Shown one piece after another: positions 336-32,878 of a stretch of DNA of 34,637 nt. This stretch comes from Acidimicrobiaceae bacterium (GTDB lineage: Bacteria > Actinomycetota > Acidimicrobiia > Acidimicrobiales > Palsa-688). The position numbers and the translations under genes were made by a program. How positions within the stretch are numbered: position 1 is the first letter of the stretch; each line of letters opens with the position of its first letter. The stretch covers positions 1 to 34,637 of the forward strand of contig JAUTXM010000331.1 in assembly GCA_030838025.1 (NCBI GenBank), in the 5' to 3' direction. The notes beneath the pieces are model-generated. The model made no database searches and was not told where the DNA came from. It worked only from the letters and a program-made list of their open reading frames with translations.

Positions 336-1592
336 ATGGAGGTGATGGCGCTGACCCGGTTGATCCACCACGTCCAACGCGTCGCACTGGGCGCGCGAAC
401 GACCTTCGCGGACGGCGAGCTCGTGGTTTCGACCGACGAGGCCGAGGGCATCATGGCCCACCCGGCGCTCGCCTCGGTGCGGCTCACCTGGGTCTCACCC
501 GGCGAATCGGCGCGGATCGTCAAGGTCCTCGACGCCGTCGAACCCCGTACCAAGGGCCCGGGTGGCGCCGGGATCTTTCCCGGCTTCGTCGGGCCTGCCC
601 GGACCCAAGGCGAAGGTGAGACCCACGTACTGCGCGGGGCGGCGGTGGTGGCGGCCGGTTTCCTGCCGAGGGCCCAGGAGGCACTGGTCGACCTGAGCGG
701 CCCCGCCGCCGCGCTGTCGCCGCTGGGCGCGACCCACAACTTGGTCGTCGAGTTCACCCCGGCGCCCGATGCCGGCTGGGAACACGTCGACGCCGCCCTC
801 CGCGCGGGTTCGCTGCGGCTGGCGGCTCGGCTGGCGGAAGCGGCGCTCGACGCCGAACCCGACGAGATCGAGGAACTCCCGTCGCCGTCGCCCATCCGTG
901 GCGACCGGCCTCGCATCGGCGCCGTCACCAACCTGCAGACCCAGGGCTTGTTCAAGGACGTCTTTGTCTACGGACGCAGTTTCGGCTCGTCGCTGCCCAC
1001 CCTGCTCGACCCCGGCGAGCTCGACGACGGCGCCGTGGTGAGTGGCCAGTTCGGCCATCCGGCCCTGAAGAACCCGACGTACATGCACCAGAACCACCCG
1101 GTCGTCAACGAGCTGCGCCGCCGCCACGGCCATGACCTCGACTTCGCGGGCCTGGTGATCTGCCCGGAACCGGTCAACCAGGCCGCCAAAGAACTGGTCT
1201 CGGCCTTCGCCGCCAAGGTGTGCGCCGCCGCGGGGTTCGACGCCGCCCTGGTCACCAAGGAGGGGGGCGGCAACGCCGACGCCGACATGGCCCTCAAGAT
1301 GGACGCGCTGGCCGACCTCGGGATCGAGGCGGTCGGGCTCTATGCCGAGATGGCCGGGATCGACGGCACCGGCCCATCCATCGTCGTGGCACCGGAGAAG
1401 GCAACCGCCATGGTCAGCACTGGCAACTACGACCACCGGCTGCAACTCCCCACGATGGACAGAGCACTCGGGGGCGACGAGTTCGCGCTGGTGCACGCTC
1501 CGGCCACATCGGCATTCGAGGTCCCCACGGCGGTGGTGTACTGCGCCCTCAGCCCGCTGGGCTGGGGACGGGTGACCGCCCGGGCCGGTTGA
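336..1592 (+). CDS. grdE: glycine/sarcosine/betaine reductase component B alpha/beta-like protein (GrdE family), without the pyruvoyl Cys
   Basis: This is a GrdE/GrdG/GrdI-family protein of 418 residues, close to the usual length of about 430. It shows family landmarks: GGIFPG-like GGAGIFPG (about 77-83), THVL (about 97-100), LQTQGLFKD (about 200-208), KNPTY (about 245-249) and GGGNADAD before a long helix. In clostridia the proprotein cleaves itself at an Asn-Cys bond to make two subunits and a pyruvoyl group that binds the substrate amine. Here the equivalent spot, in SGQFGHPALKNPTY, is Gln238-Phe239, so that Cys is missing and no pyruvoyl is expected. I chose ATG 336 because GGGAG lies 7 nt upstream; ATG 345 and GTG 288 are alternatives. 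It is the first gene of the operon, 13 nt before grdB. The family call is firm; substrate and chemistry are open. Confidence 0.88.
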   Translation: MEVMALTRLIHHVQRVALGARTTFADGELVVSTDEAEGIMAHPALASVRLTWVSPGESARIVKVLDAVEPRTKGPGGAGIFPGFVGPARTQGEGETHVLRGAAVVAAGFLPRAQEALVDLSGPAAALSPLGATHNLVVEFTPAPDAGWEHVDAALRAGSLRLAARLAEAALDAEPDEIEELPSPSPIRGDRPRIGAVTNLQTQGLFKDVFVYGRSFGSSLPTLLDPGELDDGAVVSGQFGHPALKNPTYMHQNHPVVNELRRRHGHDLDFAGLVICPEPVNQAAKELVSAFAAKVCAAAGFDAALVTKEGGGNADADMALKMDALADLGIEAVGLYAEMAGIDGTGPSIVVAPEKATAMVSTGNYDHRLQLPTMDRALGGDEFALVHAPATSAFEVPTAVVYCALSPLGWGRVTARAG

Positions 1593-1605: not shown

Positions 1606-2952
1606 GTGGCGAACATCGTCCATTACATCAACCAGTTCTTCGCCGGCGTCGGGGGCGAGGACTCGGCCGGCTCCGGACCCACCCTCGTCATGGGACCGGT
1701 CGGCCCGGGACGCCGGCTGGCGGAACTGCTCGGTCCCGAGCACGAGATCGTGGCGACGGTGTGGTGCGGCGACGATGTCGCGTCGGGCATCGTCCCCGCA
1801 ATCATCGACCTGATCCGGTCCGTGGACGTGGACGGCGGTGTGGGCAGTGACGTGGACGGCGGTGTGGGCGGCGGTGTGGATCTGGTCGCGGCCGGGCCCG
1901 CCTTCACCAGCGGCCGCTACGGCCTGGCGTGTGCCCGGGTGGCCGCCGCGGCTCACGACGCGGGCTGGCTGGCCGTGGCCTCCATGCACGAGGACAACCC
2001 GGGACTGGACGAGGCGGGCGCCACCCCGGTCGTCGCCAGCGGCGAGGTGGCCCGCCGCATGGCGCCATCGCTCGACCGCCTCGCCGGCGCCGTAACAAAG
2101 CTTCTCCGCCACGAACCCCTGACCGCGGCCGACGGCCGCATCGGCAAGCTGGCCCGACTGACGGTCATGGCCGACGCCCGCGCGGCCGAACGGGCTGTCG
2201 ACCTGGCGCTGGTTCGTCTCGCCGGCGACCACACGGCCACCGAGATCCCGCTGCCCCGGTTCGACCAGGTGACGCCCGCGGCACCGGTGGAGGACCTGAC
2301 GACCGCGATGGTCGCCCTGGTGACCGAGGGCGGATTGGTCCCCGACGACAATCCCGGCGCCCTCGAGTCGGCCCGGGCCACCCGGTGGTTGCGTTACCCG
2401 ATCGGAAACCTCGACGCCCTGATGGCGGGGGAGTGGCGGTCGATCCACGGTGGGTTCTCCACCGCGTATGCCAACGACGATCCCCACCGCATCCTGCCGC
2501 TCGACGTCGGGCGCCAGCTAGTGGCCGACGGCGCCGTCGGTTCCCTGTTCGCCGAGTACTTCGTGACGACCGGCAACGGCACCTCGGTGGCCAACGCCCG
2601 CCGTTTCGGCATCGAATGGGCCGCCGACCTCCGCCACTCCGGGGCCCGGGCCGCCATCCTCACGGCCACGTGAGGAACGGGCACGCGTTGCGGGGCAACG
2701 CTGGCGAAGGAACTGGAGCGGGCGGGTATCCCGACCGTGCTGCTGTGCAACCTGATCTCGATCGCCGAGCGGGTCGGGGCACCACGCATCGTGCCCACGC
2801 GTGGTATTCCGTACCCGACGGGCGACCCGTCCCTCACTCCCGAGGCCGAGAAGGCGTGGCGTCGCCGCCTGCTCGATCGGGCCCTGGAGGCGCTGGCGAC
2901 GACCGTCCATCAACCCACCGTGTTCGAAGTGCCCGAGGAGGCCCGTGCCTGA
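1606..2952 (+). CDS. grdB: glycine/sarcosine/betaine reductase component B selenoprotein (GrdB family), TGA = Sec at 2671-2673
   Basis: Translated through one in-frame TGA the gene encodes 448 residues, the normal GrdB length of about 435-440. The start (GTG 1606) gives MANIVHYINQFFAGVGGED, matching the clostridial KIVHYINQFFAGVGGED start. Sec is residue 356 in TATUGTGTRCGAT, inside the best conserved block of the family. The downstream sequence stays family-like (AKELERAGIP, RIVPTRGIPYPTGDPSL). In clostridia the motif is UxxCxxC; here the middle Cys is Gly359, leaving UxxGxxC. The selenol of GrdB attacks the substrate on protein B and passes a carboxymethyl group to GrdA. An acidic repeat insertion (VDGGVGSDVDGGVGGGVD) sits near residues 77-94. 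The 3' end overlaps grdC by 8 nt. Selenocysteine decoding requires selA, selB, selC and selD elsewhere in the genome. Confidence 0.92.
2671..2673 (+). other. recoded UGA (selenocysteine codon) in grdB
   Basis: This TGA lies in frame inside the GrdB reading frame at the family's selenocysteine position (T-U-G-T-x-T-R-C-G-A-T). Coding similarity continues without a break to the TGA stop at 2950-2952. A hairpin of SECIS type follows 11 nt downstream. Reading it as a stop would remove the catalytic block and leave a C-terminal orphan of about 92 residues with no start. Confidence 0.9.
2685..2701 (+). promoter_or_regulatory. bacterial SECIS hairpin of grdB
   Basis: GCGTTGC (2685-2691), loop GGG (2692-2694) and GCAACGC (2695-2701) form a perfect 7-bp stem. 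It starts 11 nt after the TGA, the spacing of the E. coli fdhF upper stem-loop that binds SelB. The loop has Gs at its first positions, as expected for bacterial SECIS elements. The hairpin lies entirely within the coding sequence. Confidence 0.78.
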
Positions 2953-4360
2953 TGTCGTGATTTCGGCCGCTGCCCAGGTGCTGGCCCATGTTCCGTTGCT
3001 GGCTCGCCACGGATCCAAGCCCCGTCGTGAGCTGCCCAAGGACCCGAACGTGGCGGCGGCGTTCGCAGCCGCGCTGCGCCCCTTTTCCCAGGCCCTGGCC
3101 TATCCGGCCAACCAGGCCTACATCAACGCCCTTCACCCACGCGACCTTCCGGCCCGGCCGTGGAGCGACCTTGCCGGGGCGACGCGCTGGAGCCGCGCAG
3201 GCGAGATCATGCCCGAGGAGGAGTTCCTGGGGTTGCTGGCGGCAATGGACGACTTCGACCTGCTGACCCTGTCGAGCGACGCCGCGGCCCAGGCGGCGGC
3301 GGCGCTGGCCCGCCACCCGCTGGCCAAGCGCCTCGACCTCGAGCGCGTCGAGCGGGCCCAAGGTGATGTGCACGCCGTGGCCTCCGAAGCGGGCGCCCTC
3401 GACGTGATTGCCGACCGCGCCGCCTTCCGGTGCGGCCAGGTTGGTGACGAGGCGCTGTCGGCGCACGTGCTGATCGACAACCTGGCGGCCAAGGCGACCG
3501 CGACGCTGGCCCTGTTGCATCTCCTGGAGAGCAGCGGGATCGACCCGGCGTCGGTGGACTACGTGCTGGGTTGCGGTGAGGAGGCCATCGGGGACCGTTA
3601 CCAGCGTGGCGGGGGCAACATGGCCAAGGCGGTGGCCGAGGCGGCAGGCCTCAGCGAGGCGTCGGGGGCGGACATCAAGAACTTCTGTGCCGCGCCCGTG
3701 CCCGCCCTCGTCATCGCCGCCAGCCTGGTCTCCTCCGGAGTGTTCCGGCGGGTGGCGGTGGTCGGCGGTGGGTGCATGGCGAAGCTGGGGATGAAGTTCC
3801 AGGGTCACCTCAAGGCGGGAATGCCGATCCTGGAGGACGTGCTCGGCGGCGCCGCCGCCCTGGTGCAGGCCGACGACGGCGTCTCGCCCCGAATTCGCCT
3901 CGACGGGGTAGGTCGCCACAAGGTGTCGGCGGGCGGTTCCAACCCCCAGGTCATGGAGGCGCTGGCGGGTGTGCCGCGCACCCGCCTCGGCCTGGCCATG
4001 ACCGACGTCGACGACTACGCCACCGAGTTGCACAACCCCGAGGTCACCGAGCCCCAGGGCTCGGGCAACGTTCCCGAGCGCAACTACCGGACCATCGCCG
4101 CCCTGGCGGCCCGCAAGGGCGACATCGCCAAGGACCAGATCCCGGCGTTCGTGGCCGAGCGCGGGATGCCCGGTTTCAGCCCCACGCAGGGCCACCTGGC
4201 GTCGTCGCTGTGTTACCTCCCCCACGCCGTGGACCGCCTAACGACGGGCGGGGCGAATAGAGTGATGCTCATCGCCAAGGGAAGCTTGTTCCTTGGGCGG
4301 GTGTGCCAGTTGTCCGATGGAATGAGCGTCCTGCTCGAAAGGAACGGCCGCCTTCAGTGA
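2945..4360 (+). CDS. grdC: glycine/sarcosine/betaine reductase component C, beta subunit (GrdC)
   Basis: This 471-residue protein belongs to the GrdC family (usually about 510), a thiolase/KAS-III-like enzyme. In clostridia it takes the Se-carboxymethyl group from GrdA as a thioester and, with GrdD, releases acetyl phosphate. Family features include YPANQAYI near residue 55, a GEIMPEEEF block near 90, GCGEEAIGDRYQRGGGN, NFCAAPVPALV with a candidate catalytic Cys, and the end block GFSPTQGHLASSLCYLPHA. I chose GTG 2945, which overlaps the grdB end, with GAGGAGG at 2935-2941; GTG 2957 is possible. The open frame extends upstream to 2801, but that part does not resemble GrdC. No grdD (the phosphotransacetylase-like partner) follows, although it normally does. 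The product may therefore be an acyl-CoA or free acid instead of acetyl phosphate; this is inference. Confidence 0.9.
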   Translation: MPDVVISAAAQVLAHVPLLARHGSKPRRELPKDPNVAAAFAAALRPFSQALAYPANQAYINALHPRDLPARPWSDLAGATRWSRAGEIMPEEEFLGLLAAMDDFDLLTLSSDAAAQAAAALARHPLAKRLDLERVERAQGDVHAVASEAGALDVIADRAAFRCGQVGDEALSAHVLIDNLAAKATATLALLHLLESSGIDPASVDYVLGCGEEAIGDRYQRGGGNMAKAVAEAAGLSEASGADIKNFCAAPVPALVIAASLVSSGVFRRVAVVGGGCMAKLGMKFQGHLKAGMPILEDVLGGAAALVQADDGVSPRIRLDGVGRHKVSAGGSNPQVMEALAGVPRTRLGLAMTDVDDYATELHNPEVTEPQGSGNVPERNYRTIAALAARKGDIAKDQIPAFVAERGMPGFSPTQGHLASSLCYLPHAVDRLTTGGANRVMLIAKGSLFLGRVCQLSDGMSVLLERNGRLQ

Positions 4361-4370
4361 GAAGAGCGTC

Positions 4371-4721
4371 ATGAGCGACACAGAAGGCGCCACCGCCGTC
4401 GTCGAGGCGACCCGGGACAACTTCAAGGATCTGGTGGCCGAGGGCACGGTGCTGGTCGACGTCTGGGGCCCCGACTGCCGCCCCTGCCTGGCGCTGAACC
4501 CCCATGTCACGACCCTGGCCGAGAAGTACGCTGGCCGGGTCAAGGTCGTCAAGCTCGAGGCGCCCAAGGCCCGGCGGTTGTGCATGGAACTCAGCATCAT
4601 GGGCATGCCCGCCTTCCTCTTGTTCCGTGACGGCAAAGAGGTGGCCCGCCTGGCCGACCCGGCGCTCACGCCATTGCGACTCAACCAATGGGTCGACGAA
4701 CAAGCGAAGGGGGTGAGTTGA
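4371..4721 (+). CDS. trxA: thioredoxin of the glycine-reductase type
   Basis: This thioredoxin has 116 residues. The active site reads WGPDCRPC, so Cys36 and Cys39 form a CxxC motif with Arg-Pro between them, and the canonical WCGPC arrangement is absent. The shifted tryptophan and the following ALNPHV resemble the dedicated thioredoxin found in clostridial grd operons. The cis-Pro loop appears as MGMPAFLLF. Its likely job is to reduce the selenide-sulfide bridge formed on GrdA (Cys-x-x-Sec) in each turnover. It starts 10 nt after grdC and its stop overlaps the TTG start chosen for grdA. No thioredoxin reductase gene is in the window. Confidence 0.88.
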   Translation: MSDTEGATAVVEATRDNFKDLVAEGTVLVDVWGPDCRPCLALNPHVTTLAEKYAGRVKVVKLEAPKARRLCMELSIMGMPAFLLFRDGKEVARLADPALTPLRLNQWVDEQAKGVS

Positions 4722-5179
4722 GACCCGTGCTCAAGGACCGGTTGGTGATCGCCCTTGGTGAGCGCGACGGCATCTCGGGGCTGGCCATTGCGGCCTGCGC
4801 CACCGCTGCGGGGGCCCAGGTGGCCTTCGTAGCCACCGAGTGCTTCGTCTGAACTGCGTCTGGAGCCATGGACCTGCAGAGCCAGGAGGCAATCTTCCGG
4901 CTCGCCCAAGCCAACGACCCCAAGTCGCTGCTCGTACTGCTCGGCGCTCCTGACCCGGAGGCGGCCGAGATCTCAGCCGAGACGGTGATCCTGGGGGACC
5001 CGGCCTACGCAGGCGCCCTGGCTGGGGCCCAGTTGGGCCTCGACGTGTACCACGTGCTGGACGACGACGTGAAGGCCGACGTGCCCGACGACGTCTGGGA
5101 GGAGCAGATCGGCCTCATGGCCGATGTGCTCGACGCCGACGCCCTGTCGGCGGCGGTGCGCTCGATGCACCAGACCTGA
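4718..5179 (+). CDS. grdA: glycine/sarcosine/betaine reductase component A selenoprotein (GrdA), TGA = Sec at 4850-4852
   Basis: Translated through one TGA the gene gives about 153 residues, the usual GrdA size. The order of motifs is GERDGISG, then ECFVUTASGAMDL with the Cys-x-x-Sec redox pair, then ILGDPAYAGALAGAQLGL and VYHVLDDDVKADV, all characteristic. GrdA is the small carrier that shuttles the Se-carboxymethyl intermediate from protein B to protein C and is recycled by thioredoxin. TTG 4718 overlaps the trxA stop; GTG 4727 (spacing 9 nt from GGTGAG) is an equally good start. Sec is residue 45 or 42. Stopping at the TGA would split one conserved domain. The sequence keeps all visible hallmark residues, unlike its GrdE and GrdB partners. 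Confidence 0.93.
4850..4852 (+). other. recoded UGA (selenocysteine codon) in grdA
   Basis: This in-frame TGA sits in ECFV-U-TASGAMD, the invariant Cys-x-x-Sec motif of glycine reductase protein A. The same frame runs upstream to a start coupled to trxA and downstream to the stop at 5177-5179. Confidence 0.92.
4859..4880 (+). promoter_or_regulatory. candidate SECIS hairpin of grdA
   Basis: TCTG (4859-4862) pairs with CAGA (4877-4880). After a G-G mismatch, AG (4864-4865) pairs with CT (4874-4875), closing an 8-nt loop CCATGGAC. The loop centre is about 17 nt after the TGA, similar to grdB. The helix is weaker than the grdB one; a competing CCTG/CAGG hairpin (4873-4886) exists. A SECIS must be near here, but the exact fold is inference. 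Confidence 0.4.
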
Positions 5180-11576: not shown

Positions 11577-12926
11577 TCAGCGATCGACGTCGCCCATGAC
11601 CGGGTCGATGCTGGCGATAACCGGCACCGCATCGGCGATCAACCCGCCGCGCAGCATGGGCGGCAGGGCCTGCAGATTGGTGAAGCTGGGCGCCCGGATG
11701 TGCAACCGGTACGGCTTGTTGGCACCCTCGGACACCAGGTAGCACCCGAGCTCGCCCCGGGGCGACTCGATGGGCACATACGTCTCGCCCGGCGGCACCC
11801 GGAAGCCCTCGGTGAACAGCTTGAAATGGTGGATCAGCGCTTCCATGGACTCGTCGATTCGCGACCGCGGGGGCGGCGTGACCTTGCGGTCCTGGACGCG
11901 GTAGTCGCCCGCGGGCAGCAGATCGAGGATCTGGCGGGCGATGTGGACCGACTCGCGGATCTCGTTCAGCCGGATGAGGAACCGGTCCCAACAGTCGCCG
12001 GCGCTGCCGACGATCACGTCGAAGTCGACCGAGTCGTAGGCCAGGTAGGGCAGGTCCCGCCGCAGGTCGGAGGGCACGCCGGTCGAGCGGAGGATGGGGC
12101 CGCTGGCACCGAGGGCGATGGCCTGCTCGGCCGTGATGGCCCCTACCCCCGACAGTCGCTGGTGAAAGAGCGGCTGCTGGGCGACGAAGGTGTTGTACTG
12201 GTCGAGCCGCTTGTCCATGGTGTCGCAGATGGCCTGCACGTCGTCTCGCCAGCCATCGGGAAGATCGGCGGCCACGCCCCCGGGCCGGATGTAGTTGTGG
12301 TTCATGCGCAGCCCCGTGACCTTCTCGAAGAACGAGAGGATCAGCTCCCGTTCCCGGAAGCCCACGATCATGACCGTCGTGGCACCGAGTTCGGCCCCCA
12401 TGGTGGCGATGGAGACCAGGTGCGACGTGACCCGGTTGAGCTCGCACATGAGCATCCGGATCCACGTGGCTCGAGGCGGGATCTCGACATCGAGCAGTCG
12501 CTCGACGGCCAGCGAGTAGGCCAGTTCGTTGTAGAACGGCGAGAGATAGTCCATCCGGGTGACGTTGGTCGAGCCCTGGATGTACATCAGCTCCTCGGCG
12601 GTCTTCTCCATGCCCGTGTGCAGGTACCCGATCACGGGCTTGCTGCGCAGGATGTTCTCGCCTTGGAGTTCCAGCATCAACCGCAGGACGCCGTGCGTCG
12701 AGGGGTGCTGGGGCCCCATGTTGATGATCATGGTCTCGTCTTCGCGCACCTCGAAGTCGACGTCTTCCATGTCGAGCACGTGGCCCTCGGCCAGGCGCAG
12801 GACGGCGCCCGACTCCTCCTGGAGAACCTGGGGCGGGGTGGCCGCGCGGGGCGCCATTTCCTGGGCCCCTTCCCAGGTCAGCCGGCCGATCTGACTCGAA
12901 GTCGGGACATCGGTCACGTCGCTCAT
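11577..12926 (-). CDS. nuoD: NADH-quinone oxidoreductase subunit D
   Basis: This 449-residue protein is the 49-kDa (NuoD) subunit of complex I, which forms the quinone site on the peripheral arm with NuoB. Family motifs are present: INMGPQHPSTHGVLRL (about 68-83), GYLHTGMEKTAEE, NVTRMDYLSPFYNELAY, CELNRVTSHL, NHNYIRPGG and the C-terminal block ELGCYLVSEG to IASIDPVMGDVDR. The ATG at 12926 overlaps the sensor kinase stop as ATGA, so the gene is translationally coupled to the two-component system. No other nuo gene is in the window, which is unusual because nuoD normally sits in a nuoA-N operon. It may be a relocated sole copy or a second copy. The protein looks intact. Confidence 0.96.
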   Translation of the reverse strand: MSDVTDVPTSSQIGRLTWEGAQEMAPRAATPPQVLQEESGAVLRLAEGHVLDMEDVDFEVREDETMIINMGPQHPSTHGVLRLMLELQGENILRSKPVIGYLHTGMEKTAEELMYIQGSTNVTRMDYLSPFYNELAYSLAVERLLDVEIPPRATWIRMLMCELNRVTSHLVSIATMGAELGATTVMIVGFRERELILSFFEKVTGLRMNHNYIRPGGVAADLPDGWRDDVQAICDTMDKRLDQYNTFVAQQPLFHQRLSGVGAITAEQAIALGASGPILRSTGVPSDLRRDLPYLAYDSVDFDVIVGSAGDCWDRFLIRLNEIRESVHIARQILDLLPAGDYRVQDRKVTPPPRSRIDESMEALIHHFKLFTEGFRVPPGETYVPIESPRGELGCYLVSEGANKPYRLHIRAPSFTNLQALPPMLRGGLIADAVPVIASIDPVMGDVDR

Positions 12927-18144: not shown

Positions 18145-18671
18145 CAGGCGATATCGGCGTGGTCCGCGATCGCCCGGGTCACGGCGAGGATGATCTCGTC
18201 GGTCGAGGCGCCCGGGGTCAGTACCGCGGCCACGCCGAGGTCCTTCAGCGCTGCGCCATCGGCAACCGGGATGATTCCCCCGATTACCACGGGGATGTCG
18301 AGTCCTTGGCTTCGCAGGGTGTCGAGGATCCTCGGCACCAGCGTCATGTGGGCGCCCGAGTGGAGGGACAGGCCGATCAGCTCGACATCCTCGTCCCGCG
18401 CCGCCGCCACGACCATCTCCGGGGTCTGCTGCAAACCGGTGTAGATCACCTCGAAGCCGGCGTCGCGCAAGATCCGACCGACCACCTTGACACCGCGGTC
18501 ATGGCCGTCGAGCCCGACCTTGGCGACGAGCACCCGGTGCCGCGCACCCGGGCCGAGGCCGCCTTGGGCGTCGAGGTTGAAGCGGGGATCAAGGTCGGTG
18601 CGGGGATCGAGGTCGGTGCGGGGATCGGGGTTGGCGCGGGGATCGGTGGTCATGCGGGGACCGGGGGTCAC
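18144..18671 (-). CDS. coenzyme B12-binding small subunit of an acyl-CoA mutase
   Basis: This protein of 175 residues (169 from ATG 18653) is a B12-binding subunit, longer than the family's roughly 135 because of an N-terminal low-complexity run of DPRTDLDPR units. The cobalamin domain shows [13 protein letters not shown] with the DxHxxG lower-axial His, [10 protein letters not shown] and VVIGGIIP, all diagnostic. It binds adenosylcobalamin and pairs with the large subunit encoded just upstream. GTG 18671 overlaps the large-subunit stop as GTGA, which favours it over ATG 18653. With the partner's pocket residues this is most likely an IcmB-type subunit, though methylmalonyl-CoA mutase small subunits look the same. 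Confidence 0.9.
18577..18653 (-). repeat. 18-bp degenerate tandem repeat at the start of the B12-binding gene
   Basis: The plus-strand unit GGGGATCGAGGTCGGTGC occurs about twice almost exactly and further times in decayed form, encoding DPRTDL-like hexapeptides on the minus strand. It is confined to the N-terminal extension, outside the cobalamin domain. Confidence 0.6.
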
Positions 18672-20395
18672 AGGGCCGCTCGTTCGACGTAACGGCCGAA
18701 CACGTCGGCCATGGCGCCCATGACCTCGCCGATCGTGGCGTAGGCCCGGACGGCGTCGATGATGGCGGGCATCACGTTGGCGGTTGGATCCGCCGCCGCC
18801 GCCCTCACCCGGGCGAGGCCCTCCTCGACCGGCACGGTCGCACGGTGGCGACGCAACTCGGCCAGCCGCTTGCATTGCGCCTGCTCCACCTCGGGCCCGA
18901 TCGAGAGTAGCGGCACCGCATCGCCGCCGGGCTCGCGGTTGGTGAACCGGTTGACTCCGACCTGCACCCGCCGGCCCGCCGCCAGGTCGCGCTGGAAGGC
19001 GTACGCCGCCTCGGCGATTTCGGACTGGAACCAGTTGGACTCGATGCCCGCAAGCACACCTTCCAGGATCGAGCCCCGCCCCCAGTCATCGAGTTTGGCG
19101 AAGATGGCCTCGGCCTGGCGCTCCATCTCGTCGGTCAGCCACTCGAGGTAGTGCGACCCGCCGAGGGGATCGGCGACGGTGGGCGCTCCGGTTTCGAAGG
19201 CGACGACCTGCTGGGTGCGAAGGGCCAGCCGGGCCGCTTTTTCTGTCGGCAGGGCCAGCGCCTCGTCGAAGGCGTCGGTGTGCAGGCTCTGGGTCCCGCC
19301 GAGCGCCGCCGCCAGGGCCTGGATGGCGACCCGGGCGATGTTGAGTTCCGGTTGCTGCGCCGTCAGGGACACGCCGGCGGTCTGCGTGTGGAACCGCAGC
19401 TGGAGCGATCGCGGATGCGTCGCGCCGTAGCGCCCGCGCATCCATCGGGCCCAGATTCGGCGGGCCGCCCGGTACTTCGCGATCTCCTCGAAGAAGTCGA
19501 TGTGGGCATTGAAGAAAAAGCTCAACCGGGGCGCGAAGTCGTCCACCGCGAGCCCCGCTGCCATCACCGCCTCGACGTATGCGAACCCGTTGGCCAGCGT
19601 GAACGCCAACTCCTGGGCGGCGGTCGAACCGGCCTCCCGGATGTGGTAGCCGGATACCGATACGGGGTACCACCGGGGCATCTCGGCGGCGCAGAATCGG
19701 ATCACGTCGGAGACCAGGCGCACCGAGGGTCGGGGCGGGAACACGAACTCCTTCTGGGCCTGATACTCCTTCAAGATGTCGTTCTGGAGGGTCCCACCGA
19801 GCGCCCCGCGAGCGATCCCGCGATTCTCGGCCGCCGCCACGTAGAGGGCCAGCGCCACCGGAGCGGGGGAGTTGATGGTCATGGAGGTGGTGACCTGGGC
19901 CAGGTCGATCCCTGCGAAGAGATCCTCGAAATCGGCGAGCGAGTCGACGGCCACGCCGGCCTTTCCGACCTCGCCGGCGCTGCGCGGATCGTCGGAGTCG
20001 CGGCCCATCAGCGTCGGTAGGTCGAACGCCGTGCTGAGCCCGTCACCGCCGGCCCGGAGGATCTCGCGGAAGCGGGCGTTGGTGTCCTCGGCCGTGCCGA
20101 ACCCGGCGAACATCCGCATCGTCCACAGCTTCGATCGGTACATCGAGGCGTAAGGGCCTCGGGTATAGGGGAACAACCCCGGGAACTCCCCGTCGTCGGG
20201 GCCGTACACCGGCTCGAGCGGGATACCCGAGATGGTGGACGCGTCGAGTTCCCGCAGACGTGATTCCGCATACAGCTCGCGCCAATGGTCGCCGTTGAGG
20301 CGTCCGACGCGCTCGCCCTCTGCGCCATCTGCGCTGTCAGGGTCGTCGGCGCCGCTGGCGTCGCCGGCTTCGGGGTTGGTAGTGCCGGTGCTCAC
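18668..20395 (-). CDS. B12-dependent acyl-CoA mutase large subunit, isobutyryl-CoA mutase-like
   Basis: This 575-residue protein belongs to the methylmalonyl-CoA mutase superfamily, catalytic TIM-barrel part only. Motifs include [13 protein letters not shown] (about 75-87), [47 protein letters not shown] (Tyr250-His251), [26 protein letters not shown] and [13 protein letters not shown]. Substrate selection in the family rests on two positions: Tyr89/Arg207 in methylmalonyl-CoA mutase versus Phe/Gln in isobutyryl-CoA mutase. Here they are Phe96 (MFAGFG) and Gln214 (YQAQKEF), which argues for isobutyryl-/butyryl-CoA interconversion, or another uncharged branched acyl-CoA. GTG 20395 lacks a clear ribosome binding site, and the first 30 residues are acidic and non-conserved. 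It is divergent from a MarR gene and coupled to the small subunit. Confidence 0.93.
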
Positions 20396-27297: not shown

Positions 27298-28977
<1,680 letters not shown>

Positions 28978-29035
28978 GTGGGGCACGGTACAAGGCCGGT
29001 GTGACTGCGAGGTCGCCCGGTACTCTGGAGGGGCG

Positions 29036-32000
29036 ATGTCGAGCGAATCCAACGCCGACGACCGGCGGTGGCTAGGCCCCAACGCCTGGTTGGTCGACGA
29101 GATGTACGAGCAATACCGGCAGGACCCGTCTTCGGTGAGCGAGAGTTGGCAGGAGTTCTTCGCCGACTACCACCACCGCGGCCTAGTGGCGACGAGGCCC
29201 GAACCGTCGGGCGCGCCCGACGGGGGGGTCGCCCCGGCCCCGGTCGCCGAGCCCGCGGCGGTATCGGTCCCCACCCCTGCGGCGCGCACCGGCATCGACG
29301 GTGACGGCGCGGGCGCAGCCGGGGTCGCTGTTGGCGCCCCTGCTGCTGGCGCCGCTGCTGCTGGCGCCGCTGCTGCTGGCGCGGGTGCTGGTGCGGGTGG
29401 CGGCGCCGGTGCCGGCGAGGAGGTCGTGGTGCTGCGCGGGGCTGCGGCTCGCATCGCGGCCAACATGGAGGCCAGCCTCCGCGTGCCCACCGCAACGAGC
29501 GTGCGGGTCGTCCCCGCGGGCCTCCTCGAGGTCAACCGCCGGATCCTGAACAACCAGCTGGCCCGGGTGGGCGCGGGCAAGGTGAGCGTCACCCACTTGA
29601 TCGGCTTCGCCGTGGTCAAGGCATTGCAGGCAGTACCCGCCCTGAACTCGTCGTTCGTCGCCGGGGAACCTCCGGGCGTGGTCCACCACGCGCATGTCGG
29701 CCTGGGCTTGGCGGTGGACCACAAGAAGGCCGACGGAAGCCGGACCCTCCTCGTGCCGGTGATCAAGGGGGCCGACACCTTCGAGTTCCGGGCCTTCTGG
29801 GCGGCCTACGAGGAGCTCATTCGCAAGATTCGCACCGGCAAGATCAGCCCCGACGACTTCGCCGGGGCGACGGTGACACTCACCAACCCGGGCACCGTCG
29901 GCACCGTCGGCAGCGTGCCGCGCTTGATGCCCGGCCAGGGCGCCATCGTGGCCGTCGGGAGCCTCGACTATCCGGCCGAGTGGCAGGCCGCGGACCCCCG
30001 GACGCTGGCCGCCATGGGGTTGTCGAAGGTCATGACGCTCACCTCGACCTACGACCACCGGATCATCCAGGGTGCCGAGTCGGGCACGTTCCTCGCCCGG
30101 GTACATGAGCTGCTGATCGGCGAGCACGGCTTCTACGACGAGGTCTTCCGCTCGATGGGCATCCCCTATGAGCCGGTCCGCTGGCTTCGCGACATCAACG
30201 ACCCCGCGGGAAGCGACGCCGCCCACACCTCGCAGATACAAAAGCAGGTGCACGTCCAGACGCTGATCAACATGTACCGGGTGCGGGGGCACCTGATCGC
30301 CCACCTCGACCCCCTCGACTGGCGAGAGCCCCACACCCACCCCGAGCTCAACACCACGACCTACGGGCTGACTCTGTGGGACCTGGAGCGGGAGTTCCTG
30401 ACCGACGGACTGGCGGGCAAGGCCAGCATGAAGCTGGGTGACATCCTGGGCGTGCTGCGCGACGCCTACTGCCGCACCGTCGGCGTCGAGTACATGCACA
30501 TCCAGGAACCGGACCAGAAGAAGTGGATCCAGGAGCACGTCGAGGGCGTTTCGATCCATCTGCGCCCCGAGGAGCACCGCCACATCCTCACCCGGCTCAA
30601 CGCGGCCGAGGCGCTGGAGCGCTTCTTGGACACCAAGTACATCGGTCAGAAACGCTTCGGCCTCGAAGGGGCCGAGTCCGCCATCGCCCTGCTCGACGCG
30701 GTGCTCGACCAGGCGGGTGAGGCGGGGATGCAGAGCGCGGTGCTCGGGATGGCCCATCGGGGGCGCCTGAACGTGCTCATCAACATCGTGGGCAAGAGCT
30801 ACGGCGAGCTGTTCCAGGAGTTCGAGGGCAACCTCGACCCCGATACCACCCAGGGCTCGGGCGATGTCAAGTACCACAAGGGCTATCACGGCAAGTTCAC
30901 CGGCTTGTCGGGCATCGAACTCGACGTCCACCTCTCGTCGAACCCGTCGCATCTCGAGGCGGTCGATCCGGTCGTGGAGGGCATGACCCGCGCCTACCAG
31001 GACCTGAGTGAGACCGACAGCGGGCGACCCGTCCTGGCCGTGCTGGTGCACGGTGACGCCGCGTTTGCCGGGCAGGGGGTCGTGGCCGAGACGCTCAACA
31101 TGTCCGCCCTGCACGGCTACACCACCGGGGGCACGGTGCACCTGGTCATCAACAATCAGCTGGGCTTCACCACCAACCCCGAGTCGGCCCGCTCCTCGGT
31201 GTATGCCACCGACGTGGCCAAGATGGTCCAGGCGCCCATCTTCCACGTCAATGGCGACGACCCAGAAGCGTGCGTGCGCGTGGGCCGACTGGCGTTTCAG
31301 TTCCGCCAGGCCTTCCACAAGGACGTCGTCATCGACATGGTGTGCTACCGGCGGTTCGGGCACAACGAGCAGGACGACCCGAGCCTCACCCAGCCCCGGA
31401 TGTACGACCTGATCAAGATTCACCGCAGCGTGCGCAAGATTTACACCGAAACCCTGGTGCGCCGCGGTGACATCACCATGGACGAGGCGGAGGCCGCGCT
31501 GAAGGACTTCAGCACCCGCCTCCAGGCGGCGTTGGACGAGACGAGGGCCACCGCCCCGCCCCGACCGACCAGGCTTCAGGCGCGACTCCCGCCGGCACCC
31601 GTCCTGCCTCCGATCCCGACGGGTGTCCCGATCGAGACGCTGGACCGCATCGCGTCGGTGTTGCACAACCCGCCCGAGGCGTTCACGGTGCATCCCAAGT
31701 TGATCCGGGTGTTCGACAACCGGGCCAAGTTGTGGGCCGGGGGAGAGGCGGACTGGGCGCTCGGTGAGGCCTTGGCGTACGGGACGCTGTTGCTGGAAGG
31801 ACACGACGTCCGGCTGGCCGGCCAGGACACCCGGCGAGGCACCTTCGGCCACCGCAACGCGGCGTTGATCGACGTCCGCACGGGATCGGAGTGGATCCCG
31901 CTGCAGCACCTGCAGCCGTCATATGACGTCGAGGCTCAAGTCGAAGTCGCAGCCGCAGCCGGGGCCGATGTCAACGGGTTCGGCGGGCCCGAAGGGTCGA

Positions 32001-32878
32001 GACCCTCGCCGGGCCGGTTCTTCGTGTACGACTCGCTGCTTTCGGAATACGCCGCCCTGGGCTTCGAGTACGGGTATTCGGTCGTGCAGCAGGATGCCCT
32101 GGTGGCCTGGGAAGCCCAGTTCGGCGACTTCGTCAACGGCGGCCAGGTGATCATCGATCAGTTCCTGGTGGCCTCACGGGCCAAATGGGGCCAGACCTGT
32201 GGCCTCACGCTGTTGCTCCCCCATGGCTACGAAGGGCAGGGGGCGGAGCACAGCTCGGCGCGCGTCGAGCGGTTCCTGCAACTCTGCGCGGGAGACAACA
32301 TCCAAGTCACCAATCCGACGACGTCGGCCCAGCTGTTCCACCTGCTGCGCCGCCAGGTGCACCGCAGCGCCAAACGGCCGTTGATCCTGCTCACCCCGAA
32401 GAAATATCTCCGGGCCCGCGAGGCGTACAGCAAGGCGGAGGAGTTTTCGAGCGGGCACTTCCGGGAGGTGATCGACGACGGCGTCGCCGATCCGACGTCG
32501 GTGCGGCGCGTCATCCTCGCCTCGGGCAAGATGGCGTTGGACCTCGCGTCCTACCGCCTGCGCACCGGAGCCGGGGCGGCCGCCCAGAGCGACGCCGCCG
32601 TCGTCCGGGTCGAGCAACTCTACCCATGGCCCGACGGCCAGATCGCCGCCGTCCTGGCTCGCTACCCGAACGCGACACAGGTGATCTGGGCCCAGGAGGA
32701 GCCGGAGAACATGGGCGGGTGGTGGTTCGCCCGCGCCAAGCTGCAGAAGCTGCTCGGCGAGGACGGCCGGTTGTCATCGGTGGCCCGACTGCCGTCGGGT
32801 TCACCGGCCACGGGAAGCGCCGCCCTGTCGACGCTGGAAGCCGACGACCTCATGCGTCGAGCGTTCGGAGACCGGTAG
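29036..32878 (+). CDS. kgd: multifunctional 2-oxoglutarate dehydrogenase E1 / decarboxylase with fused E2 domain
   Basis: The protein has 1280 residues, the actinobacterial KGD/OdhA architecture. Residues 1-45 are the E1 N-terminal segment (NAWLVDEMYEQYRQDPSSV). Residues 51-129 are an Ala/Gly/Pro-rich linker that replaces a lipoyl domain. Residues about 130-365 are an E2 succinyltransferase catalytic domain with His341 in TYDHRIIQGAESG. From about 400 the thiamine-diphosphate E1 follows, with GMAHRGRLNVL, HGDAAFAGQGVVAETLN (about 672-688) and FGHNEQDDPSLTQP. The complex converts 2-oxoglutarate to succinyl-CoA (or succinic semialdehyde) in the TCA cycle, using lipoyl groups on the shared E2. 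ATG 29036 has GGAGGGG upstream. It is divergent from ettA. Confidence 0.97.
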   Translation: MSSESNADDRRWLGPNAWLVDEMYEQYRQDPSSVSESWQEFFADYHHRGLVATRPEPSGAPDGGVAPAPVAEPAAVSVPTPAARTGIDGDGAGAAGVAVGAPAAGAAAAGAAAAGAGAGAGGGAGAGEEVVVLRGAAARIAANMEASLRVPTATSVRVVPAGLLEVNRRILNNQLARVGAGKVSVTHLIGFAVVKALQAVPALNSSFVAGEPPGVVHHAHVGLGLAVDHKKADGSRTLLVPVIKGADTFEFRAFWAAYEELIRKIRTGKISPDDFAGATVTLTNPGTVGTVGSVPRLMPGQGAIVAVGSLDYPAEWQAADPRTLAAMGLSKVMTLTSTYDHRIIQGAESGTFLARVHELLIGEHGFYDEVFRSMGIPYEPVRWLRDINDPAGSDAAHTSQIQKQVHVQTLINMYRVRGHLIAHLDPLDWREPHTHPELNTTTYGLTLWDLEREFLTDGLAGKASMKLGDILGVLRDAYCRTVGVEYMHIQEPDQKKWIQEHVEGVSIHLRPEEHRHILTRLNAAEALERFLDTKYIGQKRFGLEGAESAIALLDAVLDQAGEAGMQSAVLGMAHRGRLNVLINIVGKSYGELFQEFEGNLDPDTTQGSGDVKYHKGYHGKFTGLSGIELDVHLSSNPSHLEAVDPVVEGMTRAYQDLSETDSGRPVLAVLVHGDAAFAGQGVVAETLNMSALHGYTTGGTVHLVINNQLGFTTNPESARSSVYATDVAKMVQAPIFHVNGDDPEACVRVGRLAFQFRQAFHKDVVIDMVCYRRFGHNEQDDPSLTQPRMYDLIKIHRSVRKIYTETLVRRGDITMDEAEAALKDFSTRLQAALDETRATAPPRPTRLQARLPPAPVLPPIPTGVPIETLDRIASVLHNPPEAFTVHPKLIRVFDNRAKLWAGGEADWALGEALAYGTLLLEGHDVRLAGQDTRRGTFGHRNAALIDVRTGSEWIPLQHLQPSYDVEAQVEVAAAAGADVNGFGGPEGSRPSPGRFFVYDSLLSEYAALGFEYGYSVVQQDALVAWEAQFGDFVNGGQVIIDQFLVASRAKWGQTCGLTLLLPHGYEGQGAEHSSARVERFLQLCAGDNIQVTNPTTSAQLFHLLRRQVHRSAKRPLILLTPKKYLRAREAYSKAEEFSSGHFREVIDDGVADPTSVRRVILASGKMALDLASYRLRTGAGAAAQSDAAVVRVEQLYPWPDGQIAAVLARYPNATQVIWAQEEPENMGGWWFARAKLQKLLGEDGRLSSVARLPSGSPATGSAALSTLEADDLMRRAFGDR
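29324..29412 (+). repeat. GC-rich coding repeat in the kgd linker
   Basis: A 15-bp unit close to GCCGCTGCTGCTGGC recurs several times and decays into GGTGCG units, encoding the Ala/Gly linker between the N-terminal segment and the E2 domain of KGD. Such linkers vary widely in length between species. Confidence 0.65.

What the first reader, a model, noticed from the sequence alone, without database searches (positions are those of the whole stretch)
336..1592. GrdE-like protein lacks the self-cleaving, pyruvoyl-forming cysteine
In clostridial GrdE/GrdG/GrdI a proprotein cleaves at Asn-Cys (Cys242 in C. sticklandii) in a stretch just before KNPTY. Here the aligned stretch is SGQFGHPALKNPTY: Gln238-Phe239 in place of Asn-Cys, at nearly the same residue number. 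Without it there is no pyruvoyl group to bind an amino acid as a Schiff base. The complex probably acts on a different substrate or by a different mechanism. The clostridial sequence is recalled from memory.
Basis: partly seen in the sequence, partly recalled or inferred. Interest (0 to 1): 0.85.

Follow-up and report, generated by a model that had tools for sequence, protein, structure and literature searches.

The report
Pyruvoyl-less, GrdD-less glycine-reductase-like selenoprotein operon
Uncultured oxygen-respiring soil and groundwater actinobacteria carry a selenium-dependent enzyme set related to the clostridial glycine reductase, but it lacks both the self-cleaving cysteine and the subunit that makes acetyl phosphate, so it probably reduces a different substrate and hands on its product in a different way.

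Summary
Window residues Gln238-Phe239 stand exactly where the processing Asn-Cys242 of clostridial GrdE stands, and no Cys lies near the site in any of 58 distinct clade sequences. It is a fixed trait under purifying selection, not an error. The feature alone is not new: published FarE and betaine GrdI lack this Cys, and GrdI shows SGSF here.

What looks new is the package. The operon is grdE-grdB(Sec)-grdC-trx-grdA(Sec), found in uncultured Acidimicrobiia, Thermoleophilia and Pseudonocardiales. (i) GrdE has SGQ[FYL]GHP for SGNC. (ii) GrdB has UGTG for UGTC, and Ser/Ala for an Asp kept in nearly every other GrdB examined. (iii) GrdD is absent from 34/34 genomes, Pta from 31/34, acetate kinase from 25/34. 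(iv) All 34 encode a haem-copper oxidase.

Best reading: a Sec-dependent reductase of an alpha-substituted acetate-type substrate that needs no Schiff base, with KAS III/thiolase-fold GrdC passing the acyl group to an acceptor other than GrdD, perhaps CoA. Substrate and product are inferred, not shown. New variant of a known kind.

The parts
336..1592 (+). GrdE-like (component B alpha-type) protein, 418 aa, unprocessed type
   Evidence: PF09338 335.5 bits; alignment A1; only copy in the genome
1041..1073 (+). Site aligned with the proprotein cleavage site: S236-G-Q238-F239-G-H241-P-A-L-K-N246 in place of SGN-C; Q238 at 1047-1049, F239 at 1050-1052
   Evidence: Cys242 of A. noterae GrdE aligned here
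1257..1259 (+). Lys308 of GrdE (TKEGGGN), Glu in all GrdE/GrdG/GrdI compared; invariant Lys in the clade
1606..2952 (+). GrdB-like selenoprotein, 448 aa with Sec356
   Evidence: TIGR01918 394.8 bits read through UGA; PF07355 326.7 bits
2458..2460 (+). Ser285 of GrdB (HGGFS); Asp in every GrdB/GrdF/GrdH and other lineage compared outside the clade and its sister
2671..2673 (+). Sec codon UGA of GrdB; the motif is UGTGTRC, so Gly359 replaces the first Cys of UGTCTRC
2685..2701 (+). Stem-loop 14-30 nt downstream of the start of the GrdB UGA, probable bacterial SECIS
   Evidence: alifold -7.5 kcal/mol against -1.7 +/- 1.5 for column shuffles, 0 of 100 as low; T-A to A-T compensatory change in 2 of 55 sequences; window alone z -1.63
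2957..4360 (+). GrdC-like, KAS III/thiolase fold, Cys244 at 3686-3688; carries the GrdC signature of GrdD-less systems (EEAIGDRYQRGG, DIKNFCAAP, GMKF)
   Evidence: NF040746 545 bits, cutoff 450; model pLDDT 90.8 with 935 PDB matches at E <= 0.001, best listed KAS III enzymes; signature
4371..4721 (+). Thioredoxin with CRPC active site
   Evidence: PF00085 67 bits, above its cutoff; NF047697 is the best NCBIfam hit, 86.7 bits, below its cutoff
4727..5179 (+). GrdA-like selenoprotein A; Sec UGA at 4850-4852 (CFVU)
   Evidence: NF040748 182 bits, cutoff 130; CFVU conserved

Best explanation
A divergent, coherent branch of the glycine/betaine/sarcosine reductase superfamily (grdE-B-C-trx-A) that works without a pyruvoyl group and without GrdD. 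Shown by sequence: GrdE lacks the cleavage Cys; GrdB and GrdA keep UGA/Sec; GrdB has lost the first Cys of UxxCxxC and an otherwise near-universal Asp; no GrdD was found in the genomes searched; the hosts have tRNA-Sec, SelB and haem-copper oxidase. Inferred mechanism: unprocessed GrdE holds GrdB and helps form the pocket. The Sec of GrdB attacks the alpha carbon of an X-CH2-COO(-)-type substrate whose leaving group X needs no Schiff-base activation (a non-primary-amine group such as halide, sulfonium or quaternary ammonium). The carboxymethyl group passes to the Sec of GrdA, is reduced by the operon's thioredoxin, and leaves as an acyl thioester on Cys244 of KAS III/thiolase-fold GrdC, which releases it to an acceptor other than GrdD and phosphate, most simply CoA. 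The exact substrate and the acceptor are not determined.
For: Loss of Asn-Cys in 58/58 clade rows and a fixed replacement motif. GrdB with in-frame UGA wherever the region is covered, UGTG in 53/53 readable rows, Ser/Ala for Asp in 54/54. GrdD: no match above cutoff in 34/34 genomes, only PlsX-level background, while the same family gives 552 bits on E. gilvus GrdD and GrdD is found beside GrdC in A. noterae, Photobacterium and Enterococcus loci. GrdC of all GrdD-less systems shares its own signature, unlike GrdC that works with GrdD. Pta over cutoff in 3/34 and acetate kinase in 9/34, so in most of these genomes acetyl phosphate would have no ordinary route to ATP. GrdC model matches KAS III/thiolase structures. 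tRNA-Sec and SelB present, probable SECIS with covariation. dN/dS about 0.1.
Against: No substrate evidence: the genes next to the operon are not conserved and no transporter or racemase travels with it. The betaine system (GrdI/GrdH) is also pyruvoyl-less yet keeps GrdD and UGTC, so the losses need not be mechanistically linked. The Asp-to-Ser argument rests on alignment; no structure of GrdB was modelled and no ligand is known. CoA as acceptor is a guess from fold homology; canonical GrdC has family hits to the same fold without using CoA as far as known. The own genome is 79% complete, and it and 8 other genomes of the set do have acetate kinase.
Confidence: 0.55

Rival explanations
1. It is a betaine-type reductase: a quaternary ammonium substrate (glycine betaine or a relative) is reduced to trimethylamine and acetyl-enzyme, exactly as GrdI/GrdH do without a pyruvoyl group.
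For: GrdI, like this protein, lacks Asn-Cys (SGSF), and betaine needs no Schiff base. Published precedent.
Against: GrdE here is not specifically close to GrdI: 32-34% identical to GrdI and 33-35% to GrdE/GrdG, and the tree puts GrdI with GrdE/GrdG, apart from this clade. GrdB lacks the Asp kept by GrdH. No BCCT transporter beside the operon.
Confidence: 0.15
2. It is still an amino-acid (glycine/sarcosine) reductase; the pyruvoyl of GrdE is only a protective or regenerating group and can be lost, the substrate carbonyl being elsewhere, for instance in GrdB.
For: Literature view that GrdB holds the substrate carbonyl and that the GrdE pyruvoyl keeps GrdB active (PMC9908766). GrdB STUG context kept in form as TATUG.
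Against: GrdB fails both published specificity motifs: glycine (AHGGxD...TxGNxTxV) and sarcosine (IHGGYDR...) from PMC9751293; the window reads IHGGFST. Glu308 to Lys in GrdE and Asp285 to Ser in GrdB remove negative charges.
Confidence: 0.15
3. A pyruvoyl or other carbonyl is made at another residue (for example Ser236 or Cys296) by unconventional processing, so the protein is a proprotein after all.
For: Other pyruvoyl enzymes form the group from Ser (general knowledge); Ser236 is in the site; Cys296 is Cys in 54/58.
Against: Ser236 is Gly in 2 of 58 and is also present in canonical SGNC, so it is not a replacement; Cys296 is Ala in 4 of 58 and about 57 residues away.
Confidence: 0.05
4. A reductive dehalogenase-like function close to fluoroacetate reductase FarEB (haloacetate to acetate plus halide).
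For: FarE lacks the processing Cys and FarB lacks the CxxC residues; here GrdE lacks the Cys and GrdB lacks the first of its two Cys. A halide needs no Schiff base.
Against: Only 130 bits to the FarE model (cutoff 675), well below the 240 bits to the GrdG model. No MFS antiporter or radical SAM gene among the neighbours scanned, unlike farACEB. FarEB is described as feeding the host's common A and C proteins, whereas this operon has its own A and C and the genomes have no D.
Confidence: 0.1

Closest known systems
Clostridial glycine/sarcosine reductase (GrdE/GrdG, GrdB/GrdF, GrdA, GrdC, GrdD)
   Same: Same protein families E, B, C, A and thioredoxin in one operon; Sec in A (CFVU) and B; GrdC with a KAS III-like Cys.
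   Different: GrdE has Asn-Cys242 and pyruvoyl; GrdB UGTC and HGGxD/HGGYD; GrdD present and acetyl phosphate formed; hosts described as anaerobes.
Betaine reductase GrdI/GrdH
   Same: GrdI lacks the processing Cys (SGSF).
   Different: GrdH keeps UGTC and the Asp (HAGFD); GrdD in the same E. gilvus operon; next to a BCCT transporter; separate in the tree.
Fluoroacetate reductase FarE/FarB (Cloacibacillus; PMC10838667)
   Same: FarE lacks the processing cysteines and FarB lacks the CxxC residues after Sec.
   Different: Distant by profile score; uses A and C proteins encoded elsewhere; operon has an antiporter and a radical SAM protein.
D-proline reductase PrdA/PrdB
   Same: PrdA's Thr-Cys processing site lies on the same alignment column; PrdB of clostridia is Sec.
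   Different: PrdA is processed; no acetyl-phosphate branch; only 41.6 bits between the window protein and the PrdA model.

Membership tests
PF09338 Gly_reductase (GrdE/GrdG/GrdI superfamily) | Profile match over the whole length above cutoff | tested here: met
   335.5 bits, cutoff 22.2, residues 5-415
Pyruvoyl proprotein GrdE/GrdG (glycine or sarcosine type) | Asn-Cys processing site giving a Cys-derived pyruvoyl | tested here: not met
   Gln238-Phe239; 0 of 58 clade rows have a Cys near the site
Glycine reductase complex (acetyl-phosphate-forming) | GrdD (component C alpha) present | tested here: not met
   0 of 34 genomes over the cutoff of NF040747
Glycine reductase complex (acetyl-phosphate-forming) | Selenoproteins GrdA and GrdB with Sec machinery | tested here: met
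   NF040748 and TIGR01918 above cutoff through UGA; tRNA-Sec 65 bits, SelB 252 bits, probable SECIS in GrdB
Glycine-specific GrdB | Motif AHGGxD[QTAP]...RV[IL]PxD...TxGNxTxV (PMC9751293) | tested here: not met
   Window reads IHGGFSTA...RILPLD...TTGNGTSV; among others the A and D positions fail
Sarcosine-specific GrdF/GrdG | NCBIfam exception models NF040793/NF040794 above cutoff; IHGGYDR motif | tested here: not met
   239.7 against cutoff 780 and 385 against 800; IHGGFST
Betaine reductase GrdI/GrdH | NF040795 GrdH above cutoff | tested here: not met
   356 bits against cutoff 775
Fluoroacetate reductase FarE | NF053623 above cutoff | tested here: not met
   130.5 bits against cutoff 675
Fluoroacetate reductase FarE | Dehalogenation of fluoroacetate | not testable with these tools
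   needs an enzyme assay

The most novel reading that the evidence does not exclude
Respiring Actinomycetota hold a second architecture of the selenium-dependent reductase, in which loss of the pyruvoyl, of the first GrdB cysteine and of GrdD belong together: an unprocessed GrdE with a Sec-GrdB reduces a non-amine alpha-substituted acid, and GrdC alone transfers the acyl group to CoA, giving acyl-CoA instead of acetyl phosphate under oxic or micro-oxic conditions.
Probability: 0.25. Interest if true: 0.75.

Novelty: new variant of a known kind. Interest (0 to 1): 0.55.

Why it matters
Glycine-reductase-type enzymes are treated as anaerobic, acetyl-phosphate-forming selenoenzymes, and automatic annotation would call this operon glycine/sarcosine/betaine reductase. 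A widespread GrdD-less, pyruvoyl-less version in oxygen-respiring, uncultured actinobacteria means that annotation is probably wrong for these genomes. It also makes an open question testable, namely what the GrdE pyruvoyl is for, because nature has removed it together with a defined set of other residues. GrdE has no homologue in the PDB by sequence or, at E <= 0.001, by fold.

Tried and rejected
Another Cys at the processing site: rejected. Frame error or decaying gene: rejected (dN/dS about 0.1, same motif in independent assemblies). Substrate from neighbouring genes: no neighbour is conserved; a SelD-like gene upstream in L122 fits Sec use only. Fold of GrdE as a clue: good model (pLDDT 89) but no PDB match at E <= 0.001. 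Solved relatives by sequence of GrdE or GrdB: none. SECIS for GrdA: no conserved fold found (z 0.07, alifold 0). Rfam scan of the window: nothing. First wide alignment was too diverse to seed a scan.

Full report
The window is one whole contig (G000:C313) of a 3.5-Mb, 79%-complete metagenome-assembled genome. Its own genus and order relatives, and the titles of named relatives found by sequence, place it in or near Acidimicrobiia. The finding lies in an operon that begins 336 bases from the contig's edge, so genes upstream of it are not visible here.

The observation. The protein encoded at 336-1592 belongs to the GrdE family (PF09338, 335.5 bits). To test the recalled clostridial sequence I used real ones: the annotated GrdG of Peptoclostridium acidaminophilum DSM 3953, the GrdE of Acetoanaerobium noterae from a grdE-A-B-C-D operon, a Photobacterium GrdE, and the GrdI next to grdH of Enterococcus gilvus. 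The alignment is gapless through the site: SGNCVSACDKNPTY (A. noterae, Cys242) against SGQFGHPALKNPTY (window). The chemistry at that Cys is experimentally established: in C. difficile the pyruvoyl-labelled GrdE peptide begins at residue 242 (PMC9908766). PrdA's Thr-Cys lies on the same column.

How general it is. Among actinobacterial genomes, 16 of 397 (phylum sample) and 19 of 298 (order sample) have a GrdE-family gene. None of the sequences that cover the site has Asn-Cys there. A named search gave 53 loci, all of them metagenome-assembled genomes: Acidimicrobiia, Thermoleophilia, Pseudonocardiales and other Actinomycetota, one Dormiibacterota, one Methylomirabilota and one Desulfobacterales. 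In the tree built without the site columns, 58 rows including the window form one clade (SH-aLRT 100) with [SG][GA]Q[FYL]GHP. The Methylomirabilota sequence L144 is its sister with SGNYGHP. GrdE, GrdG and GrdI form another group. Three more small lineages (L064/L075, L065/L066, L077/L078) also lack the Asn-Cys (quick method, several long branches, so deep order is unsure). In the clade Gln238, Gly240, His241 and Pro242 are invariant, and there is no Cys within the 20 residues around the site.

The rest of the operon differs too. The order is E-B-C-(Trx)-A in nearly every clade locus that is long enough; a few lack Trx, show no A, or have Trx displaced. GrdB reads through an in-frame UGA in all 53 readable rows, followed by codons for Gly-Thr-Gly instead of Gly-Thr-Cys: the first Cys of UxxCxxC is gone. 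A stem-loop 14-30 nucleotides after the start of the UGA is conserved and shows a compensatory change. It is a plausible SECIS, although for the window alone the fold is only 1.6 standard deviations better than shuffles. An Asp that follows HGG/HAG in every GrdB, GrdF, GrdH and the other lineages compared is Ser or Ala in all 54 clade rows that cover it. In GrdE, Glu308 of the canonical proteins is an invariant Lys. The window GrdB fails the published glycine and sarcosine motifs (PMC9751293).

GrdD is missing. The model for component C alpha (NF040747) scores 552 bits on E. gilvus GrdD, but across 34 genomes that hold the operon, or a related one, nothing passes its cutoff. The weak hits are at the level also seen in E. 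coli and B. subtilis, fitting PlsX, which is related to GrdD. Of those genomes 24 are at least 90% complete with at most 5% contamination. Pta passes its cutoff in 3 of 34 and acetate kinase in 9 of 34; the window's own genome has acetate kinase but no Pta match. GrdC of all GrdD-less systems, including the three other lineages, shares residues that differ from GrdC found with GrdD (EEAxGDRYQRGG, D[IV]KxFC, GMKF or close variants against EEACGDxNQRGG, RGFC, GMN). This looks like an old split in GrdC that follows the presence of GrdD. The GrdC model (pLDDT 90.8) matches KAS III and thiolase-type enzymes. All 34 genomes encode a haem-copper oxidase, and the window carries a complex I subunit and a 2-oxoglutarate dehydrogenase. 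tRNA-Sec is above the gathering score in 29 of 34, including the window's genome, and SelB is above cutoff in 21 of 22 tested.

Interpretation. Shown: the loss of the processing site, conservation of its replacement, the GrdB changes, the absence of a detectable GrdD, Sec machinery, purifying selection (dN/dS about 0.1). Inferred: no pyruvoyl; a substrate that does not need a Schiff base; an acceptor for the acyl group other than GrdD. The charge changes argue against a simple amino-acid substrate but do not prove it. The literature is divided on whether the GrdE pyruvoyl binds substrate at all, so the missing Cys by itself is weak evidence about substrate. I put 0.55 on the general reading (non-Schiff-base substrate, GrdD-independent product), 0.15 each on betaine-type and on amino-acid reduction without pyruvoyl, 0.1 on a FarEB-like dehalogenase.

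Novelty. Pyruvoyl-less GrdE homologues are known; I found no description of a complete GrdD-less E-B-C-Trx-A system in respiring actinobacteria in the papers I could search, though that library is open-access only. I rate it a new variant of a known kind.

Noticed in passing
L149 (Desulfobacterales bin60, CP070694.1): GrdE match of only 278 aa with SGNYVIPSNRN at the site (Asn kept, Cys lost); GrdA hit in the locus but no GrdB within the 14.8 kb read.
   Followed up: partly
L144 (Candidatus Methylomirabilota, JACQEV010000069.1): Sister of the clade with SGNYGHPSLKN: Asn kept, Cys already lost, Ser at the GrdB Asp position, no GrdD in the locus. Looks like an intermediate state.
   Followed up: partly
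L065, L066, L064, L075, L077, L078 (other Actinomycetota genomes): Three further GrdE lineages without Asn-Cys, all GrdD-less; their GrdB, where readable, has UGTG or UGTS but keeps the Asp; probably other substrates.
   Followed up: partly
L063 and L145 (G660:C39 / JAUJNB010000001.1): grdE, grdB and grdC split over several frames; either sequencing errors or a decaying copy.
   Followed up: no
L122:5478-6506: A selenophosphate-synthetase-like (AIRS) gene lies just upstream of the operon in Solirubrobacteraceae; in G160 tRNA-Sec and SelB matches lie on the same contig (C37).
   Followed up: no
window 28796-32878: Fused 2-oxoglutarate dehydrogenase E1 plus acyltransferase protein; methylmalonyl-CoA mutase subunit at 18668-20395; complex I 49-kDa subunit at 11577-12926 next to a two-component system.
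   Followed up: no
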